This document shows, in pieces, positions 42,101 through 59,337 of a stretch of 64,000 nucleotides of DNA. The DNA comes from Botryococcus braunii (lineage: Eukaryota > Chlorophyta > Trebouxiophyceae). The stretch covers positions 800,659-864,658 of the forward strand of contig KV908338.1 of assembly GCA_002005505.1 (NCBI GenBank), written 5' to 3'. Numbering within the stretch: the first letter of the stretch is position 1; each line of letters starts with the position of its first letter. The position numbers and the translations under genes were made by a program. A model generated the notes under the pieces. That model worked only from the letters and a program-made list of their open reading frames with translations, had not been told where the DNA came from and did not search any database.

Positions 42101-42657
42101 ACATCAGATCGGAGCCGGACGCAACTCCTCCAGCCTCCCGCATATATCCACTGTCTGGAGCCCAGCTTGCTGAGCTACGTGCACAGTTGCAGGAGCTCCT
42201 TGAGAGGGGGTTCATCCGCCCATCGACATCACCATTTGGTGCACCCATCTTATTTGTTCCCAAAAAGGATGGTGGATGGCGTTTATGCATTGACTACAGG
42301 GCCTTGAATAGGATTACTGCTAGGAACCAACACCCATTGCCTAGGATTGATGATGTTCGAGCAATTGCATGGAAGTTTTGTATTTTCTAAGCTAGACCTT
42401 GCCTCTGGATATCATCAGATACGTATGCATGAGGACAGCATAGAAAAGATTGCTTTTAAAACCCGTTATGGTCATTATGAGTTCACTGTTATGCCTTTTG
42501 GGTTAACCAATGCACTTGCCACCTTTCAGTCTGTGATGAACTCTATCTTGTCTCCCTTCCTTGATAGATTTGTTCTGGTGTACCTAGACGATATCCTCAT
42601 ATATTCTAAATCTGTTGCAGAGCATATGGAGCATTTGAGGACAGTCTTGTCAGTGCT
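42101..42657 (+). pseudogene. Element B pol segment: reverse transcriptase
   Basis: Reads [16 protein letters not shown] through [20 protein letters not shown], breaks frame near 42,350 by an apparent single-base loss compared with C, then [14 protein letters not shown] and [12 protein letters not shown]. It ends where F inserted at 42,658. Confidence 0.9.
42653..42657. repeat. Target site duplication of element F (GTGCT), left copy
   Basis: Matches 48,944-48,948; located in the RT of B. Confidence 0.92.
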
Positions 42658-43348
42658 TGTTGTGTTAATAAATTTTATGCCTTTCCCTCAGAGGAGAAAT
42701 AATGGCAAGTCTCCGGATGAGGACAATACCAATTAGGAAGGAGAGGCAAAACTCTGAGTTCTGCCAGGCAATACATGCATTTGAACGAAGACTATCATAA
42801 CGCAAGTTACAGACACGTTTGTAGAAAGGAGGCATATGGGGCAAGCACGGAGAGGGAAGGCACTTGATTGGAACTATAGCAGCACTCCGGGTGTCTATCA
42901 ATCAGTTGCCAACCAGTCCTTGACTTGTATATGTCCGTGCCTACTTAACAACGCACAAGTAGGAGGACATCGTCTAACACCCTCCGTGCCGCCACCATGC
43001 AGGTGACTTAACCCTTATTGTATTCCTGGATTTAGCACTCAGATGAACATTGTTAGAACAAGCTAGACATATGGAGTTGAGTTTAGCTCATCGGACAAAG
43101 TAACGAGCATGACCTGAGTGAGAGCAGGTTAGGCGTGTTTGAACTGCGTCACCTTATTAGGAGAGATGAGAGATATTGTAAGACTTGATTGGAACTATAG
43201 CAGCACTCCGGGTGTCTATCAATCAGTTGCCAACCAGTCCTTGACTTGTATATGTCCGTGCCTACTTAACAACGCACAAGTAGGAGGACATCGTCTAACA
43301 CCCTCCGTGCCGCCACCATGCAGGATACGCCAAGCCCAGAATATTTCA
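42658..43348 (+). repeat. Element F 5' LTR
   Basis: 691 bp with an internal direct repeat of about 130-140 bp (from about 42,862 and again from about 43,193, offset 331). The inner LTR end is at 43,348. Confidence 0.95.
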
Positions 43349-43362
43349 GGTTATGGGCCCAC
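43349..43362 (+). promoter_or_regulatory. Element F primer binding site, half-tRNA type
   Basis: GGTTATGGGCCCAC directly after the LTR is complementary to the anticodon arm of initiator tRNA-Met (GGGCCCAUAACC, anticodon CAU). This is the arrangement known for Drosophila copia, which primes from a 5' half of that tRNA. Confidence 0.85.
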
Positions 43363-43416
43363 GGGCTCGGATGCTGAGAGTGGGTGGCGCCTAAATCGGA
43401 GCTCACTAGACTGTGA

Positions 43417-43614
43417 ATGGCGAAGAAGCGAACAAAGCAAACAGCCAGGAAGACTACCAACCTCAACGTCCCAGCGCGCTTGAGATCAGGACCTCCGTCA
43501 TACAACGAACTAATCAGAGAAGGAGGACAACGTGGAGACCGCAATCCTGGCGAGAGAGCCTTTATCGTCAAAGACTACATTTTTCACCTTCACGTTGGCT
43601 GTCCGCTAGAGTAA
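43417..43614 (+). CDS. Element F leader ORF with histone H3 tail-like N-terminus
   Basis: 65 codons from ATG at 43,417 to TAA, ending 51 bp before the gag ATG. It begins MAKKRTKQTARKTT. The known N-terminus of histone H3 (after Met) is ARTKQTARKST, so RTKQTARK, covering K4 and K9, is identical over eight residues. The remainder (including NELIREGGQRGDRNPGERAF) does not resemble H3 and I do not recognise it. It may be an upstream ORF, a small accessory protein, or chance. Ribosome profiling or conservation in other copies of F would tell. Confidence 0.5.
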   Translation: MAKKRTKQTARKTTNLNVPARLRSGPPSYNELIREGGQRGDRNPGERAFIVKDYIFHLHVGCPLE

Positions 43615-43665: not shown

Positions 43666-46600
43666 ATGACTTCCAAGAAGAAAGGATCATCAGCTAGTGG
43701 AGCATCAACGTCAAGCAGTGAACCAGCCTCATCCACGCCCATCAGAGAACCATGTACTCCCAGCACCTCAAGAGGCAGCGGAGATGAGCTGCCCAAGATT
43801 ATCCCAACAAATGTCAAGGTACACATAAAACTGAAGGAACGGGGGACAAATATTATTGTTTGGAAGAATGCATTTTTGGCAGCAAATGAGTCAAAAGGGT
43901 CTCTGGCTGCCATCCTGGAGGCTATGCCTGGTACAGCACATGATGCAGCCGCAATGTTGCTGATTTATGAGTCAGTTCCAGAGGAATGGCTGGGACCTCT
44001 GTCTAATCTGCCCTCTGCCTATGATGCATATGAGTTCATCTGCAGAAAGTTTATTGGTGGATATAATATCCAGGCCAATGCAGACTGGCTCCAAGAAATG
44101 AACCAGGGAATGAAACATGACGAGACGATATCGCAGTATGTCAACAGAATGATCAACCTGAAGGCATGCCTTGACAGGAACAACCATGCTCTACTGGATG
44201 CACACGTTGCAACCCAGATTGTGCAGGGCTTGCCTGATGCAGCTAAAGAGCCAGGAATGATCACAACTGCTGCAGCACAACCCCTGGAGAAGCTGGCCGG
44301 ACTTTTGCGCAACACAGCAGCGGCAGTGGGTTTTGATGAATATGCTCCTCGCCAACCAAGGGTTTTGGCTCTTGGACAAGGCTCCAGTGGAACCAATACC
44401 CCACCAGCTGCCAGTGCAGCCCATCAGCAGGCCCAACCAACTGTCTCTGAGGCCAAGTCCGAGACAAAGGGCATCTGCAACTACTGCAATAAGAAGGGGC
44501 ATTACTGGAGGGACTGTCGAAAGAGGAAGCGGGACGAGGAGACCCAACGGAACGTAGTGGCAGCGGTCCAACAACTGCAGGGAATGTGGCTACAGGGACC
44601 TCCACCTATGGGTGGCCCACACCCTCCTGCAGCCCAGCTGGCGCACCCTGGACTGGATGCCTTTCCTGCATGGTTTCAACCCCCAGCTCCCCCACCTCCA
44701 CCACCTAGAGGTATGCCATACATAATTTCCCTCAACATCCTGAAGACTCCTGTCAGAAATTCGTCTCTGCAATCCTGGCTGGTGGACAGTGGAGCATCTG
44801 TACATCTGGTGAATGATGTGACCTTGCTACATAATCCAACTGTGCATGCCAAACCCATCCCATTACATCTGGCCACTTCAGATGCCACTGGAGGAATTGT
44901 AGCATCTGGCTCTGTCTGCATCCTCAGTCGAGTGGGAGTTCCCTTGTGGATACATCATGTTCAGTGTGTTCCTTCTGCAACCTCAAACATACTGTCAGTA
45001 TCTGCAGCATTGCGGGATGGGGCAGTCTTTCGCACAGATGATGTTGGAGCATTCACTGAAGTCTGTGGTCCAAACAGCTGGAGGTCTCGGATCAGTGCAG
45101 AGAAAGGGCTATTTTACATTCATCAAGTTGTAGCTCTGAGTCCCAGTGTTAACCACAGAATCATCTCGGCTGCTGTGAAGTCCAAAACCCCCACCCAAAA
45201 CTCACACAACTGTGCCAGACGATACCTCTGGCATAGCAGAATGGGACATCCAGGTGAAACATGGATGCAGCGCCTAACCAATGAGGACCTGGTCTCAGGA
45301 CTTGATACATCCCTATGCCCCTGCTCCAATTGTCCAGTCTTCTGTGAAGCATGTATTGAGGGAAAGACGTCTCGGCCTCCATTTGGAGTAAGTAGTAGAC
45401 CAGCTGTTGAACCACTTGACAGAGTACATATTGACACTGTGGGCCCCATTTTTCCTGCTGCAGTAACTGGTGAACGTTACTGGGTGACTGCTTTGGATGA
45501 GTCATCTCAGTTAAAGGCAGTCCTGCCTGTGAAGTCCAAAGATGCCATCAGTGCTGCTGTGCGGGACCTCCTTCTATATTGGCAGACCCAGAAGAAAACC
45601 AAAGTGAAGTGTGTCCGAAGTGACCGTGGAACTAGGTCTGAATGCCGCAACCACCAATTGGATGGCCTGACCCGGGCCCAACGACACGAACAACGCATTG
45701 CCGCCAAAGACCTCCTGCTGCCACAGGAGAAGGGAGAGAGCAGAGAGCGAGAGGGGTTGACTGAAGGTGACTCTCTGTCACAGGGACCAGGGGAAGTGCA
45801 GCTAGAGGGTGATTCACATGAGGGGCATGAATTGCATGTGAGTGCAGTGAGGGGGGCAGCTACATGCAAAGCTGCAAATGGTCCCGGGGAGCTGAGCAGC
45901 ATGGGTGGGTCCTGTTCAGTGATTGAGAGAAATGTAAGAGATGTGACCATGCAGAGTTCTTTTGGCAACCCGTCCAGTCAGAGCACTCCTGGACGGGACT
46001 GTGGTGGCAGCCACCGGTCAGAGGAAGCATCATATGCTCCCTCTGCACCAGCCAAACATGATTGTGAGCGGGAGACAGGGTCTGCATCCTTGACTCCGTG
46101 TAAGGGACGAGAGGAGGAGGTGAATCAGGAGCACAGACATTGTGGAGACAGACCAAATTACAAGTGCTCACTGAGAGGTACCTGTGCCTGGGAGAGTGAT
46201 GTCAGAGATGTGAGGTCACTCCCAACAGTGACATGCAGTCGGTCTGAGAGGCATGTGGATCACGTGAATCAGGGGAAGTATGCAGACACTCTGCCATATC
46301 CCGATGTTGTTTGTGAGAGACCTGAAGAGTCTGAACTCTTGCAGGCATGTCAGAGTGTGTCCGAGGAGGTGAATCGGACGTCTGGACAATGTGAAGGAAA
46401 TCCAAATTACAAAGACTGTCCGAGAGGTACCTGTGCATGGGAGGATGATGTGAGGGATGAGCAGAGTAACTTGTGCAAAGCCAAGTGTGAGTCCAAGCGA
46501 GAGCGTGCTATGAGAGTGCATTCTACTCCTACTGGAGAGCCTGTGATGTGTAACTCAGCGAGTGTCAGTGGAAGAGTAGTGGGTTCTGGACAAAGTGAGG

Positions 46601-48252: not shown

Positions 48253-48943
48253 TGTTGTGTTAATAAATTTTATGCCTTTCCCTCAGAGGAGAAATAATGG
48301 CAAGTCTCCGGATGAGGACAATACCAATTAGGAAGGAGAGGCAAAACTCTGAGTTCTGCCAGGCAATACATGCATTTGAACGAAGACTATCATAACGCAA
48401 GTTACAGACACGTTTGTAGAAAGGAGGCATATGGGGCAAGCACGGATTGGGAAGGCACTTGATTGGAACTATAGCAGCACTCCGGGTGTCTATCAATCAG
48501 TTGCCAACCAGTCCTTGACTTGTATATGTCCGTGCCTACTTAACAACGCACAAGTAGGAGGACATCGTCTAACACCCTCCGTGCCGCCACCATGCAGGTG
48601 ACTTAACCCTTATTGTATTCCTGGATTTAGCACTCAGATGAACATTGTTAGAACAAGCTAGACATATGGAGTTGAGTTTAGCTCATCGGACAAAGTAACG
48701 AGCATGACCTGAGTGAGAGCAGGTTAGGCGTGTTTGAACTGCGTCACCTTATTAGGAGAGATGAGAGATATTGTAAGACTTGATTGGAACTATAGCAGCA
48801 CTCCGGGTGTCTATCAATCAGTTGCCAACCAGTCCTTGACTTGTATATGTCCGTGCCTACTTAACAACGCACAAGTAGGAGGACATCGTCTAACACCCTC
48901 CGTGCCGCCACCATGCAGGATACGCCAAGCCCAGAATATTTCA
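48253..48943 (+). repeat. Element F 3' LTR
   Basis: 691 bp, partner of 42,658-43,348; followed by TSD GTGCT at 48,944-48,948. Confidence 0.95.
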
Positions 48944-49708
48944 GTGCTCAGGGAACATAAATTTTATTGCAAAAGGTCTAAGTGTGATTTTGTTGCTAAG
49001 CAGGTGGAATACCTTGGACACCTGTTGACACCTCATGGGATTATGGTGGATCCTAGGAAGGTTGCAGCCATTCAGGATTGGCCCACTCCTTTGAATGTGT
49101 CACAGTTGAGAGGGTTTCTAGGTCTTACTCAATATTATGATACTTTTATGGACCATTTTGAAGATGTTGCCTATCCTCTTACTGAGTTGCTCAAAAAGGA
49201 TGTGCCTTGGACCTGGGAGGGACCCCAGAGGGAAGCCTTTGTAGCACTGAAAGATCTTGTTTCTACTCCTCCTTGCCTTTTGATGCCTGATTTAGATAAA
49301 CCTTTTGTTGTGCATGTAGATGCCTCAGGTTTTGCTGTTGGTGCTGTGTTGCAGCAGGATCAAGGAAAGGGACTGCAGCCCGTTGCCTTCGAGTCCAGGA
49401 AACTCCAACCCCCTGAGAGGAAGTTAGCACCATATGACAGAGAGTTGCTTGCTCTTGTTCATGCCTTGCTTAAATGGAAGCATTTGTTGCTGGATGCTAA
49501 GTTTACTGTACACACTGACCAGCAAGCACTAAAGTATTTATTGACTTCTCCTGTTAGGACTAGCAGGCAGGAAAGATGGCTTACTGAAATCATGAGATTC
49601 ATGCCTGATATTAAATATGTGAAGGGCACTGACAATGTTGTTGCAGATGCTTTGTCTAGGCGTGTTGATTTGGCAGTAATGCATGTCTCCTCTGTTTCTG
49701 TCTCGTCC
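48944..49708 (+). pseudogene. Element B pol segment: RT C-terminus and RNase H
   Basis: After the F LTR the B frame resumes with [36 protein letters not shown], RNase H FVVHVDASGFAVGAVL and VTDQQAL-like [11 protein letters not shown], ending at SSVSVSS. From 49,709 the DNA is the LTR of H. No stop lies within this piece. Confidence 0.9.
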
Positions 49709-49897
49709 TGTAGTATCTTGCTTGTCTCAAGTTCGTGTGAGAATGACCTCACACAGGTGCGACCCGTCTGATAGCACCCCGCCAGCCAAGCTGGCCAGAT
49801 TACGTAATGAGGTCATCGTACCCCGCTCTCCGATCACGCGCTATCGGCTCGATGCCGATCGGCTCCCTAACGGACCCTTCGCACTCGGAACGTTACA
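49709..49897 (-). repeat. Element H 3' LTR
   Basis: 189 bp, plus-strand TGTAGTATCTTG to AACGTTACA. Left border set by the break in B homology compared with C. The partner LTR is outside the window. Confidence 0.75.
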
Positions 49898-55100: not shown

Positions 55101-56291
55101 ATACCTGACAGAAAGTGGCAATCAATGTCTATGGACCTAATCACTGGACTGCCAAGAACTAAGGAAGGATATGACGCTATCTGGGTTGCTGTTGATAGGT
55201 TGTCAAAGTATGCGCACTTCGCTCCGACGACCACTGACGCAAGTGCAGAAGTGATAGCTCAACTGTTACGGACCCGGGTTTTCACCTTGCATGGGTTTCC
55301 CACTCACATTGTATCAGACAGAGATCCTAGGTGGGTGGGTCGCTTCTGTCAAGAGCTCTTTCGGTTGACCGGTTGTCGCTCTGCGCTATCTACAGCGTTT
55401 CATCCGCAGACCGACGGTCAAACGGAACGAATTAATAGGATTTTGGAGGATTATTTGCGTCATTACGTCACTGGAAGACACAACGACTGGGATAAACATT
55501 TGTGTGAGGCTGAATTTTCTTACAACAACACTTTTCAGCAATCAATCAACACTACTCCATTTAGGTTGACTTTCGGTCAGGATCCCACGATTCCCTTCCA
55601 GGAAGTCTATGAAGGTGTGACATCTTCTGTACGTGAGTATGTACCGGCAGCAGCAGAGTTTGTACGAAGGATGAGATGGGATCTAGAAAGAGCGCGGACA
55701 TGTCTCAAAGCTGCGCAGGACCGCATGAAGGCATATGCGGACGCGAGGAGAAAAGATGCTCCTATTTTAAAAATAGGCCAACCTGTCCTCCTCTCAACAA
55801 AGAATCTGAAATTCAAGCATACTCGGACAAGAAAACTCTTACCTCGGTTTATTGGGCCTTTTCCCATCGTCCAGGAGGTATCATCGGTAGCTTTCAGAAT
55901 TAGGCTTCCAAAAACTCTGAGGGTTCATGATGTCTTCCATGTTTCTATGCTTAAGCCTTATAAGGAAGGTGGGACGGTACAACCTCCTCCTCTACCTGAG
56001 ATTATTGATGGAGAAGAGGAGTATGAGGTCGAGGCTGTGCTAGCTCATAGGGAACGAAAGTTACGAGGTCGAAAAACTGCGCGAGAATATCTTGTAAAGT
56101 GGACCGGGTATCAGGATATTCATAATACTTGGGAGCCAGAGGATAACTTAGAACACGCCAGGGAGGCGTTACAGCGGTACTGGGATTTAACCACGGAGCA
56201 CAGGCCGGAACAAAAAGAAAAGGTGGACAAGAAACGTAAAGGACGTGGTAAAAATGCTGAGAAGCAGCGGAAGCGCGCTAGGCGCGCTTAG
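52146..56291 (+). CDS. Element E pol: protease, RT, RNase H, integrase, chromodomain
   Basis: 1,381 codons without interruption. Pre-protease segment (1-150) shared with D; protease VALVDTGATHSF (Asp 156); RT with VVYLDDLLVYSK (Tyr 547); RNase H ISDASDYGVGAVL (about 695); integrase zinc region VGHPGRDRTLEL...CDSCQRVK (about 930-965); core [18 protein letters not shown] and DGQTERINR; chromodomain EYEVEAVLAHRERK to WEPEDNLEHARE (about 1,292-1,345); basic tail KRARRA. A chromodomain on integrase is known in chromoviruses to direct insertion to marked chromatin. It is one long polyprotein in the -1 frame relative to gag. Confidence 0.96.
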   Translation: MSGVREGNLHTFVPWESFHSSIEQRCSEFLHCSFSRGPFDNTLPDGTSKPTFVAVPIGKAEDTLSTFAREQQANKHLSACFLMGSKVAKSKAVYPWLKGMRVILQGTKGPDVPYSYVVYHAGPKFSVSFAQAFSNRHLAMLFHVNCTGVKGVALVDTGATHSFVRHDFLATLGVRLSKKCVDVQLADGQTMRSAGTAKLRVHLSQTYVEQRDFIVCETLLDGVDLILGEDFLKERKALIDYNHGAVHLKPPHSSHYITLLNPLPPSERGTLPAQKVNVISEGQARRAMRKGCPGFWGVVREARSGQDSVCATHYLHRVAVATTEGDNPWDEDSGATGLDLNENSRRVIEGMTDKPQDLKQLLLEFLDVFPEKLPDLPPDRGILHTIPMTPGHTPPCRPTYRLAEPEVAECRRQVEELLAQGFIRPSASPYGSPILFVRKKDGTFRMVIDYRAVNNLTRKDKYPLPRIDDLLDKLQGSKFFTSFDLLSGYHQVRLHESDVPKTAFRTPLGSFEFLVLPFGLTNAPSTFQRLMNSVFHDFIREGFVVVYLDDLLVYSKSREQHLEHLTRILTRLREEKLYAKLSKCEFFADELRYLGHVVGRDGIKVDPAKVRTIVDWPTPTGSTHVRQFLGLANYFRKFVPGYSTLAAPLTRLTGKVPWMWGEAEEHAFQSLKETLSNAPVLALPDSSKPFKVISDASDYGVGAVLLQEGRPVAYFSKKLSNAERNYSTTEKELAGVLYALKEWRCYLLGQTFTVVTDHRANSFLQTQTLLSPRRARWAEFLQLFDIQWEYAPGSTNPADPLSRSPHLAGAHVRALARAQAGVQASVQARAGPLGEHSPPVGVGAMGVGEAADSTTLPTPMDGLRGWGRVLSEAYEIDDWLHRKQNRRKLSFHSGLWKRGARIYVPSHHMSSDGVERNLRREILENLHGPPIVGHPGRDRTLELVQRSWWWPGMAADVADFVAQCDSCQRVKAPAHLPAGLLHPLEIPDRKWQSMSMDLITGLPRTKEGYDAIWVAVDRLSKYAHFAPTTTDASAEVIAQLLRTRVFTLHGFPTHIVSDRDPRWVGRFCQELFRLTGCRSALSTAFHPQTDGQTERINRILEDYLRHYVTGRHNDWDKHLCEAEFSYNNTFQQSINTTPFRLTFGQDPTIPFQEVYEGVTSSVREYVPAAAEFVRRMRWDLERARTCLKAAQDRMKAYADARRKDAPILKIGQPVLLSTKNLKFKHTRTRKLLPRFIGPFPIVQEVSSVAFRIRLPKTLRVHDVFHVSMLKPYKEGGTVQPPPLPEIIDGEEEYEVEAVLAHRERKLRGRKTAREYLVKWTGYQDIHNTWEPEDNLEHAREALQRYWDLTTEHRPEQKEKVDKKRKGRGKNAEKQRKRARRA

Positions 56292-57393: not shown

Positions 57394-59337
57394 CTAGCCC
57401 GTCTTGACCCGTGCCCAATACTCCTTCAACGCCCCAGGGGCATTCCGCAAGTTCGCCTCTGATTCCCACGTGTCATGTTCAGGGGAGTATCCCACCCACC
57501 GAACCAGGAACTCATACGAGCGGCGAGCCTTCCGGTGGTGAAGAATTTTCTCCACCTCGTACTCGTCCTCCCCCTCCAGCACCTCAGCAGGTGGTGGTGG
57601 TTGGACACTGCCATCCCGGCGGTATCGTTCCAGCCGTGACACATGGAACACGTCATGTATCCTCCAGCGTGCCGGGAGGATCAACTCATAGGAGTTGCCT
57701 CCAACAGACTTGGCAATTTGGAACGGCCCGACCCACCGAGGCAACAGCTTCGGTGTGCCCTCTTTGAACCTTAGGTTCTGAGCCGACAACAGGACCCAAT
57801 CTCCTGGAGCGAACGTGACATCCTTACGCTTCGTGTTAGCGTAACGTGCCTGGCGTTCCGTCGCAATGCGATGTGTGCGCCGAGCTTCTGCCACTAAACG
57901 CTGAATGCGTTGGACAAAGCTCGAGGCAGCCGGGACCCTGAACTCTGGCAACACCGATACTGGTAGGTACGGGTGATGACCATAGTTCAACATGAACGGC
58001 GTGAAGCCCGTGCTAGAGTGCTCGGCATTGTTGATAGCGAACTCAGCACACGACAGCTTCTCGTCCCAGTCAGTCTGTGACTTAGACACATACATGCGGA
58101 GCATGTCCTCAAGAACACGGTTCACACGCTCTGTCTGCCCATCCGTCTGAGGATGATACGCCGTGGACATGGCCTGCTTGGTCCCAAGCATCCGACACAA
58201 GGCTCGAGTGAAGTGGCTGGTGAACAGGGGATCCCTGTCAGACACCACTTTCCTAGGCACTCCGTGGAGCTTCCAAATGTGATCCACAAACAGCTTCACT
58301 GTCTGCTCAGCAGTCGCCGTGGTCTGCGTAGCCACCAAATGAACCATCTTCGTCAGCTTGTCCACCACCACCAGGATGGCATCATGCCCTTCCGCGGTGC
58401 GAGGCAACTGGGTGATGAAGTCCATGGTCACCGTGTCCCACGGTTTATGCGGAAGCTCAAGGGGATGCAACAGCCCCGAAGGCTTTGCATGCCTTGCCTT
58501 GTTTTTCTGGCAGAGGTGACAGTGAGTCACGTACTGCGTCACATCCTGTGTCATCGTCGGCCACCAATAATGGCGGGCAACCAGCTTCAGGGTTTTGTTC
58601 ACACCTTGGTGTCCAGCATACGGGCTATCATGCATTTCTTCCATAAGGTGGGATCTAAGCCCAAATGCATGCGGCACAACAATCTTTCCTTCTTGTAACA
58701 GGAAGCCGTCGTGTGCGACCAGAGGCGCCACAGTGCTAGGTTCCTTGAACCAAAGGTCTTCCTGATAACCACGCACAAACTTGTCCTTCCACGTCATGCC
58801 CTCTCCCCCACCTGAAGGAGGCCTAGACTCGTGTCCCATACCACGAGCCTCTGCAGCCAAGGGAGTACCCTGTGCCCGGGTAACGGCGCAAATGACATCC
58901 CGAAGGGAGCGATTTGGAAGACAAGGGGGACCCTCCGAAACGTATGAACGAGTGGAACGAACCACAACCGCGTTCACCAATGAGTTGGGAGGTGGATATC
59001 CCACCGGCGTGCGGCTCAGCGCATCGGCAACCACATTTGAGGCACCCGCCATATGTTCCCATGTGAAATGGAACCGGGAGAGAAACTCTGCCCAACGTGT
59101 CTGGCGGCGGCTCAACTGTGCCACAGTATCAAGGTAGGTAATAGCCTTGTGGTCAGTGACCACGCGGAACTCCGGCCCACCTTCAAGATAACAGCGCCAC
59201 ACCGTTAAGGCGTGAACCACTGCTAGCAGCTCTTGCTCCCCAGTAGGATAATTGATTTCTGCCGGTGTGAGGCGACGACTCTCAAAGGCAATGGGGCGGC
59301 CCTCTTGATATAAGACGGCCCCTGTCGTAGAATGCAC
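57394..59337 (-). CDS. Element H pol, C-terminal part: RNase H, integrase, chromodomain
   Basis: 647 codons open. Starts inside RNase H (STTGAVLYQEGRPIAFESRR), cut by the LTR of J at about 59,333. RNase H core with VVTDHKAITYL; integrase zinc region GHQGVNKTLKL...CHLCQKNK; catalytic core TMDFITQLPR, VVSDRDPLFTSH, TDGQTERVNR; SH3-like linker; chromodomain EYEVEKILHHRKARR to WESEANLRNAP. Integrase is intact. The sequence is distinct from D/E, representing a third gypsy lineage here. Confidence 0.92.
   Translation of the reverse strand: MHSTTGAVLYQEGRPIAFESRRLTPAEINYPTGEQELLAVVHALTVWRCYLEGGPEFRVVTDHKAITYLDTVAQLSRRQTRWAEFLSRFHFTWEHMAGASNVVADALSRTPVGYPPPNSLVNAVVVRSTRSYVSEGPPCLPNRSLRDVICAVTRAQGTPLAAEARGMGHESRPPSGGGEGMTWKDKFVRGYQEDLWFKEPSTVAPLVAHDGFLLQEGKIVVPHAFGLRSHLMEEMHDSPYAGHQGVNKTLKLVARHYWWPTMTQDVTQYVTHCHLCQKNKARHAKPSGLLHPLELPHKPWDTVTMDFITQLPRTAEGHDAILVVVDKLTKMVHLVATQTTATAEQTVKLFVDHIWKLHGVPRKVVSDRDPLFTSHFTRALCRMLGTKQAMSTAYHPQTDGQTERVNRVLEDMLRMYVSKSQTDWDEKLSCAEFAINNAEHSSTGFTPFMLNYGHHPYLPVSVLPEFRVPAASSFVQRIQRLVAEARRTHRIATERQARYANTKRKDVTFAPGDWVLLSAQNLRFKEGTPKLLPRWVGPFQIAKSVGGNSYELILPARWRIHDVFHVSRLERYRRDGSVQPPPPAEVLEGEDEYEVEKILHHRKARRSYEFLVRWVGYSPEHDTWESEANLRNAPGALKEYWARVKTG

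What the first reader, a model, noticed from the sequence alone, without database searches (positions are those of the whole stretch)
43417..43614. Leader ORF of copia element F carries a histone H3 tail mimic
The 65-codon ORF between the PBS and gag of F begins MAKKRTKQTARKTT. Eight consecutive residues (RTKQTARK) equal histone H3 residues 2-9, including the K4 and K9 contexts; the next residue is Thr instead of Ser10, then Thr11 matches. The rest of the ORF is not H3. An element that makes or displays an H3-like tail could titrate or recruit H3K4/H3K9 readers and writers and so influence its own silencing or targeting. This is inference; an eight-residue identity at the N-terminus of an ORF is hard to dismiss but can still be chance or a captured fragment.
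Basis: partly seen in the sequence, partly recalled or inferred. Interest (0 to 1): 0.78.

Follow-up and report, generated by a model that had tools for sequence, protein, structure and literature searches.

The report
Retrotransposon protein with histone H3 tail
A family of jumping genes in a green alga encodes a small extra protein whose front end resembles the tail of histone H3, in one large branch with the silencing lysine replaced by methionine, which suggests that these elements jam the host's gene-silencing machinery.

Summary
In detail: ORF 43417-43614 starts MAKKRTKQTARKTT. It is not chance. The window ORF is a C-terminally shortened copy of a ~165-175 aa leader protein ('ORF1') lying between the 5' LTR and gag-pol of Copia elements in Botryococcus braunii or a near relative. 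ORF1 has many copies in diverged sublineages. The K9 clade keeps KQTARK (one of nine loci: KQTAGK) with different synonymous codons. A second clade aligns with H3 from the first residue, e.g. MGRTKQSGRMSTGGKRP against host MARTKQTARKSTGGKAP, with methionine at K9 in 17 of 17 rows. A DNA pattern for RT[K/R]Q[T/S]GRM occurs 216 times in the genome, with lysine instead 0 times. In that clade the tail evolves about as slowly as the core (dN/dS 0.21, 0.17) and slower than the linker between (0.55). The core has no match in Pfam. Best reading: an element-encoded H3-tail mimic that engages H3K9 silencing, the K9M form acting like the K-to-M methyltransferase traps. The mimicry is well supported; the mechanism is inference. 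Translation, partner and a host H3K9 methyltransferase are not shown.

The parts
42653..42657 (.). 5' target-site duplication GTGCT
   Evidence: flanks printed; the same five bases follow the 3' LTR at 48944-48948
42658..43348 (+). 5' LTR of the Copia element (TG...CA, 691 bp)
   Evidence: 2 mismatches (42852, 42853) to the 3' LTR
43349..43416 (+). leader between LTR and ORF1; primer-binding region by position only (tRNA not identified)
   Evidence: TGA stop directly before the ORF1 ATG
43417..43614 (+). ORF1, truncated form (65 aa) of the 166-aa leader protein
43429..43452 (+). RTKQTARK, identical to H3 residues 2-9
   Evidence: host H3
43492..43503 (+). PPSY (PPxY-type) motif, PPxY in 24 of 24 rows of A2
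   Evidence: that PPxY binds WW domains is recalled, not tested
43606..43614 (+). deletion junction CTAG|AGTAA where codons 65-166 of full-length copies are missing
   Evidence: window against L021 and L025
43666..48234 (+). Copia gag-pol ORF (1522 aa): gag, zinc knuckle, protease, gag-pre-integrase, RVT_2; most of the integrase core is missing in this copy
   Evidence: comparison copy L031; zinc knuckle and protease by motif
48253..48943 (+). 3' LTR
48944..48948 (.). 3' target-site duplication GTGCT

Best explanation
The ORF is the shortened window copy of an accessory protein (ORF1, ~165-175 aa) that Copia elements of this alga carry upstream of gag. ORF1 has (1) a probably disordered N-terminal tail that mimics the histone H3 tail around K4-K9, (2) a PPxY-type motif, (3) a conserved helical core without a recognised relative, and (4) an acidic C-tail. 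I think the tail works as a histone mimic against H3K9-based silencing. In the K9M clade, after removal of the initiator Met, a free (A/G)-R-T-(K/R)-Q-(T/S)-G-R-M-S-T-G tail would occupy the substrate groove of an H3K9 methyltransferase and hold it with SAM, as H3K9M does in fission yeast. In the K9 clade, including the window element, the tail would be a competing substrate or, once methylated, a decoy for or tether to H3K9me readers. Shown: family, position, conservation, H3 likeness, fixed Met. Inferred: translation, nuclear location, target, anti-silencing effect.
For: Full-length ORF1 lies between LTR and gag in F copies and directly before a gag ORF in a K9M-clade element. Few stops in the scored (top-ranked) matches: none in 150 of 150, 129 of 150 and 141 of 150. 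Profile searches of ORF1 against 177,635 distinct PDB sequences return almost only H3-type N-termini aligned from the first residues: A2, 88 hits at E<=10, the 60 shown are all H3, Cse4 or H3/CENP-A tails, best E 0.033; A3, 2 of 2; A4, 47 of 48. Selection: K9M clade tail dN/dS 0.21, linker 0.55, core 0.17; K9 clade tail pS 0.75 (saturated) against pN 0.13. Methionine at K9 is fixed: R2, R8, M9 (H3 numbering) invariant and T3, Q5, G7, G12 at least 90% in 14 K9M proteins; 216 places for the Met pattern, 0 for the Lys pattern (the first 100 places are listed, not each checked to be ORF1). In the G9a-H3K9M-SAM structure the ordered peptide is residues 3-12 (PMC5030085, section read), the stretch conserved here. 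Residue 2 is Ala or Gly, compatible with Met removal (recalled rule). AF2 gives the tail low confidence.
Against: No expression, protein, binding or localisation data. Single-sequence PDB searches did not return H3: P0007 nothing, P0008 two unrelated chains; only profiles did, with weak E-values (0.03 to 10), and the PDB is rich in H3 tails. In the K9 clade the linker is as constrained as the core (dN/dS 0.12, 0.13), so there the tail does not stand out. Starts were picked by a M[AG][RK] rule; 4 of 13 K9M loci (L050, L052, L053, L054) have an in-frame ATG 8 codons upstream, which would bury the tail, although gene models P0008-P0010 and P0014 start at M[AG]R. A host H3K9 methyltransferase is not shown: Pre-SET found nothing (its control rang nowhere), the one SET exon read looks ASH1/SET2-like by eye, SRA exons were few. 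K9M tails have A7G (one has R) and 13 of 17 tree rows have R at K4. Metagenome relatives have R at K9 or a diverged tail (P0005/P0006, P0012/P0013). Most scored F copies lost the C-terminal part of ORF1 and still multiplied. ATG at residue 10 could be kept as an alternative start.
Confidence: 0.45

Rival explanations
1. The tail is a basic nuclear-localisation or nucleic-acid-binding segment whose likeness to H3 is incidental convergence.
For: The relatives read are Arg/Lys-rich at the N-terminus; metagenome relatives MVRSTVRRSRTQTAQRR are basic but hardly H3-like.
Against: Non-basic H3 residues (T3, Q5, T/S6, T11, G12) are shared and largely kept in the K9M clade, which aligns from Met; profile hits are H3 tails rather than other basic proteins.
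Confidence: 0.21
2. Targeting: the tail, methylated or not, is bound by chromatin readers (chromodomain, PHD, BAH) and tethers the element's particle or integration complex to chosen chromatin. A variant is competition with the chromodomain proteins of co-resident Ty3-type elements.
For: The K9 clade mostly keeps the KQTARK context; the genome holds very many chromodomain frames, 150 scored of 1236 candidates, two of them in this window.
Against: A methionine cannot be methylated as K9 is, so readers of K9me should not bind the K9M clade; no insertion-site bias was measured.
Confidence: 0.22
3. The N-terminal part survives in the amplified, truncated F copies only because the leader RNA has a cis role (packaging, dimerisation, priming), not because a peptide is made.
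For: Copies with 65-90 aa remnants and an open ~1800-aa gag-pol exist (L022, L027, L030, L031, L040) and truncated forms are 146 of the 150 matches scored (query: the short form); 1 more stops at codon 68 and 3 are full length.
Against: Between sublineages the tail changes at synonymous sites while the protein is kept, which a pure RNA role does not predict.
Confidence: 0.08
4. The likeness was inherited from a captured H3 or CENH3 5' exon and has no present chromatin role.
For: K9M member L051 shares MART.QT.R.S.GGNRP with the host CENH3-like protein L012.
Against: dN/dS of about 0.2 in the K9M-clade tail and few amino-acid changes at saturated synonymous sites in the K9 clade are not decay; no histone domain is found.
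Confidence: 0.04

Closest known systems
EZHIP, the mammalian H3K27M-like PRC2 inhibitor ('oncohistone mimic'; PMC12713659, abstract read)
   Same: A non-histone protein carries an H3-like motif with methionine at a methylatable lysine.
   Different: Here the site is K9, the mimic is at the N-terminus, and the carrier is a retrotransposon accessory protein in an alga; inhibition is untested.
H3K9M histone mutant trapping Clr4 and bound by G9a (PMC5030085; abstract, introduction and structure section read)
   Same: Same register: R2-T3-x4-Q5-x6-x7-R8-M9-S10-T11-G12.
   Different: That is a mutated histone; this is a natural non-histone protein with A7G and, in 13 of 17 tree rows, R at K4.
Viral histone mimics such as the disputed ARKS motif of SARS-CoV-2 ORF8 (PMC10833455, part 1 of 2 of section 1 read)
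   Same: A parasite protein shares an H3-tail stretch.
   Different: Four residues there; here up to 10 of 14 identical from the N-terminus, kept over diverged lineages. The ORF8 dispute is a warning that a motif alone does not prove function.
VANC anti-silencing proteins of Arabidopsis VANDAL elements (PMC5735166, abstract read)
   Same: An element-encoded accessory protein; here too a role against silencing is proposed.
   Different: VANC causes DNA methylation loss at target elements and binds sequence motifs; ORF1 has a histone-like tail, sits in an LTR element and has no shown activity. That VANDALs are DNA transposons is recalled.
ORF0 upstream of gag-pol in Retrosat2/RIRE3/RIRE8 (PMC3485330, passages read)
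   Same: Extra ORF upstream of gag-pol in LTR retrotransposons of the plant lineage.
   Different: No H3 tail is mentioned in the passages read; no sequence comparison was made here.

Membership tests
Ty1/Copia LTR retrotransposon (the carrier) | LTRs with TG...CA ends and short target-site duplication | tested here: met
   (window copy)
Ty1/Copia LTR retrotransposon (the carrier) | Copia-type gag-pol with integrase before RVT_2 | tested here: met
   RVT_2 6.5e-66 in the window; rve (34.8 bits, cut-off 32.6), SH3-like and RVT_2 in that order in copy L031. Retrotran_gag_2 stays below its cut-off in all three proteins scanned. The window copy lacks most of rve.
Histone H3 / CENH3 | histone domain | tested here: not met
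   Pfam scan of 24 ORF1 members: no histone family; only two non-histone families at E 0.035 and 0.38
Histone H3 / CENH3 | N-terminal tail ARTKQTARKSTGGK | tested here: inconclusive
   similar, not identical: up to 10 of 14 residues identical in the K9M clade
K-to-M histone mimics (EZHIP-like) | H3-like motif with Met in place of a methylated Lys | tested here: met
   K9M clade only: 17 of 17 tree rows; 216 against 0 pattern places. The window element itself keeps K9.
K-to-M histone mimics (EZHIP-like) | SAM-dependent binding and inhibition of the methyltransferase | not testable with these tools
   needs recombinant enzyme and peptide
VANC-type anti-silencing protein | sequence-specific binding to element DNA with loss of DNA methylation | not tested
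   no relatedness search against VANC was made
Retrosat2-type ORF0 | ORF upstream of gag-pol | tested here: met
   position only
Retrosat2-type ORF0 | sequence relatedness to ORF0 | not tested
   no ORF0 sequence was compared directly; the A2 database search returned 14 proteins: 8 Botrbrau1, 5 JGI, 1 ENA

The most novel reading that the evidence does not exclude
LTR retrotransposons of a green alga encode a natural H3K9M: a non-histone protein whose free N-terminus copies H3 residues 1-14 with K9 replaced by methionine and traps the host's H3K9 methyltransferase, while a sister clade keeps a methylatable K9 as a decoy. It would be a retroelement-encoded, oncohistone-like silencing inhibitor, with two opposite solutions (substrate and trap) within one protein family.
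Probability: 0.36. Interest if true: 0.95.

Novelty: new variant of a known kind. Interest (0 to 1): 0.86.

Why it matters
How transposable elements fight chromatin silencing is little known (stated so in the VANC abstract, PMC5735166). A conserved, high-copy element protein that copies the substrate of H3K9 methyltransferases, in one clade with the substitution that acts as a dominant block in fission yeast (PMC5030085), would make retroelement counter-defence at the level of histone methylation directly testable with peptides. It would also offer natural K-to-M variants (A7G, K4R, T6S) that show what such a trap tolerates, and another natural case beside EZHIP of evolution using a K-to-M mimic. 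The core has no recognised relative.

Tried and rejected

Considered and rejected: chance; a recently pasted H3 fragment (synonymous divergence between sublineages); myristoylation of the MG- forms (A and G alternate at residue 2 and Arg follows; recalled motif rule). Whether the H3 likeness is ancestral, captured or convergent is undecided: the tree has only a midpoint root, and the likeness is not significant in P0012/P0013. The host target was sought with Pre-SET (nothing, control silent), SET (11 places; one exon read), SRA (4 places, 1 over cut-off) and chromodomain; this does not settle whether an H3K9 methyltransferase is present.

Rows dropped: L041 (frame lost after the tail), L043 (early stop), L055 and L066 (no M[AG][RK] start), L064 (N run), L047 and L048 (L048 is the same place as L044), and P0011, P0014-P0016 (short models or fragments) were left out of the tree and dN/dS; L045 (144 aa) was left out too. 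P0011 and P0014 are in A4. L060 is in the tree, not in A2 or the dN/dS sets.

Full report
OBSERVATION. The ORF at 43417-43614 is as described. It sits in a Copia element bounded by two 691-bp LTRs (42658-43348, 48253-48943; 2 mismatches between them) and a GTGCT target duplication, so the insertion is young. RTKQTARK is identical to residues 2-9 of the host's own H3, read from three genomic loci.

WHAT THE ORF IS. Copies of F in the same 176-Mb genome show that the window ORF is shortened. L021, L024 and L025 read 166 codons ending ...SESEWESDSDVERDIE; in L021 and L025 ~50 bases and then the gag ATG follow. The window type joins codon 64 to the end of ORF1 at a TAG microhomology (303 bp lost); a second, different deletion gives the 80-90 aa forms. 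Of 150 scored matches (of 740 candidates) 39 have the 65-aa form, 102 a 90-aa frame, 5 an 80-aa frame, 1 a stop at codon 68 and 3 the full 166 aa; none has a stop inside the part matched. The query was the short form, so these counts are biased towards it. Among 20 copies fetched at length and the window, several with short ORF1 have an open ~1800-aa gag-pol (L022, L027, L030, L031, L040); L031 has integrase core, SH3-like and RVT_2 domains. The window copy's pol is 1522 aa and lacks most of the integrase core.

WHERE IT OCCURS. The 166-aa protein finds five proteins at E<=0.001 in 5.8 billion: three named Botrbrau1/Bobra (taken as Botryococcus braunii) and two JGI metagenome proteins at 54% identity. 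P0002 equals the ORF of L021, so the host is B. braunii or very near; a published B-race assembly of 170.2 Mb in 983 pieces (PMC11286282, passages and section 8 read) is close to G000's 176 Mb in 989 contigs. A profile of 24 members finds 14 proteins: 8 Botrbrau1 models, 5 JGI proteins, 1 ENA protein. In the genome, searches with P0004 and P0009 scored 150 of 797 and 150 of 800 candidates; 129 and 141 of these have no stop in the match; a search with P0005 finds the same families. In one K9M-clade element (L057/L069) ORF1 of 174 codons is followed 11 bases later by a gag ORF with a Pol_BBD match over its cut-off, a sub-threshold Retrotran_gag_2 match and a zinc knuckle read by eye. Other K9M loci were fetched too short to see gag.

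THE TAIL IN OTHER SUBLINEAGES. This is the main result. The K9 clade reads MAKK(R)RTKQTARKTT or MAKRRRPKQTARKTT; L068 reads MARQRRIKQTAGKTT. The other clade starts like H3 from the first residue: MGRTKQSGRMSTGGKRPF, MARTRQTGRMSTGGNRPP, MARTRKTGRMSTGYKGP against host MARTKQTARKSTGGKAPR. K9 is methionine in 17 of 17 rows of that clade in the tree, which is one side of a branch with 100/100 support; the K9 clade (11 rows) has 96/92 (midpoint root for drawing only, a few rows identical or nearly so). In 14 aligned K9M proteins R2, R8 and M9 (H3 numbering) are invariant, and T3, Q5, G7 and G12 at least 90%. A DNA pattern for RT[K/R]Q[T/S]GRM, loosely degenerate at the K4 and T6 codons, occurs 106+110 times in the genome (reversed control 2+0); the same with Lys for Met 0+0. 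That comparison holds for the Gly7 context only, as the K9 clade has Ala7; 100 of the 216 places are listed and they were not each checked to be ORF1. Metagenome relatives read RQTARR (P0005, P0006) or SRTQTAQRR (P0012, P0013), with Arg or no clear residue at K9.

START CODON. ORF1 starts were picked by a M[AG][RK] rule. In 4 of 13 K9M loci (L050, L052, L053, L054) another ATG lies in frame 8 codons upstream; in the other nine the frame has a stop or no ATG before it. The gene models P0008, P0009, P0010 and P0014 start at M[AG]R; P0011 starts at the Met of the K9 position.

IS THE LIKENESS REAL. Shuffling residues 2-31 of each of 23 proteins gives p at the floor of 1e-5 for most ORF1 tails; the weakest B. 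braunii members are L068 (local p 3.6e-4) and L056 (1.2e-4); P0005 has 3.9e-4, and P0012/P0013 are not significant (p about 0.4). In a control of 1116 distinct ORF N-termini from the same DNA, the top entry is the host CENH3-like protein, the next 18 are all ORF1 (32-51), and the next of any kind scores 25. Profile searches against PDB sequences return H3-type tails: the 60 shown of 88, 2 of 2, 47 of 48. E-values are weak (best 0.033), H3 is over-represented in the PDB, and single-sequence searches did not find H3, so the shuffles and the N-terminus control carry more weight.

SELECTION. Between diverged members the peptide is kept while its codons change: TKQTARK is written ACAAAGCAAACAGCCAGGAAG, ACGAAGCAGACGGCAAGAAAA, ACCAAACAAACGGCTCGGAAA and AC(T/C)AAGCAAACAGCCCGGAAG. 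By Nei-Gojobori counts the K9M clade (13 sequences) has dN/dS 0.21 in the tail, 0.55 in the linker behind it, 0.17 in the core and 0.26 at the acidic end. In the K9 clade (9 sequences) the tail has pS 0.75 (saturated, ratio not computable) and pN 0.13; linker, core and acidic end have 0.12, 0.13 and 0.24, so there the linker is not looser than the core. A tail held about as firmly as the core next to a loose linker, as in the K9M clade, is what a binding motif looks like. The sequences are related by descent and no tree-based test was run.

REST OF THE PROTEIN. After the linker comes PPSY or PPTY (PPxY in 24 of 24 rows of A2; P0012/P0013 read VPSY/VPTY), then a helical core with YPAYK.T.WE.S in all 24 rows, and an acidic end. 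AF2 models of both clades give a helical core and low-confidence ends, the tail included (mean pLDDT 74.7 and 70.3). No Pfam family and no structural neighbour worth naming was found.

HOW IT MAY WORK. H3K9M dominantly blocks H3K9 methylation in fission yeast and enhances binding of the H3 tail to Clr4 in a SAM-dependent way; in the G9a-H3K9M-SAM crystal the ordered peptide is residues 3-12 and Met9 sits in the lysine pocket (PMC5030085; abstract, introduction and structure section read). The K9M clade conserves that stretch. Ala or Gly at residue 2 should allow Met removal and a free N-terminus as in H3 (recalled rule). I therefore favour, as inference, a trap in the K9M clade and a substrate or reader decoy in the K9 clade, to which the window copy belongs. 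Against: no expression or binding data, no host H3K9 methyltransferase shown, imperfect tails, the upstream ATG in some loci, and truncated F copies that multiply. Those copies keep tail and PPxY, but they are too similar to each other to show selection since the truncation.

WHAT IS KNOWN. EZHIP is a non-histone H3K27M-like mimic (PMC12713659, abstract); VANC proteins are element-encoded anti-silencing factors (PMC5735166, abstract); an ORF0 upstream of gag-pol exists in rice LTR elements (PMC3485330, passages), and extra ORFs are captured in rotifer LTR elements (PMC5408684, abstract). The disputed ORF8 ARKS case (PMC10833455, part 1 of section 1) shows that a motif alone is not proof. In the listings of ten searches (two of them empty, several showing only the top rows of many) I saw no title or abstract start reporting a retroelement-encoded H3-tail or H3K9M mimic; most subscription papers are not held there.

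VERDICT. Observation confirmed; mimicry real and conserved (my confidence ~0.9); anti-silencing mechanism plausible but unproven (~0.45).

Noticed in passing
L012 (G000:C224:264756-267932): Host CENH3-like protein starts MARTKQTARKSVGGNRPVYGRKR; it shares GGNRP with the K9M-clade tail of L051.
   Followed up: partly
window 42862-43003 and 43183-43324 (and 48457-48598, 48778-48919): Each LTR carries an exact internal duplication of 142 bp (spacing 321).
   Followed up: no
window about 42350-42650 and 48950-49770: The Copia element appears to be inserted in a Ty3-type reverse transcriptase / RNase H sequence that continues on both sides (read by eye from the ORF list).
   Followed up: no
window 56022-56186 (+) and 57409-57561 (-): Two of the very many chromodomain matches of this genome lie in the window (150 scored of 1236 candidates, many in frames of 1198 or 1382 aa, as expected of Ty3-type polyproteins).
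   Followed up: no
G000:C565:65002-65364 (L064): Genome search reported an ORF1 match in an open frame of 1821 aa; the start of the fetched stretch reads as N, so it is probably a gap effect.
   Followed up: partly
P0012, P0013, P0016 (JGI metagenome proteins on contigs of 21-34 kb): Relatives outside the Botrbrau1 set keep the core but have VPSY, VPTY or VPTC instead of PPxY and a diverged basic tail.
   Followed up: no
window 46114-46210 and 46363-46459: A 75% identical direct repeat inside the gag-pol ORF.
   Followed up: no
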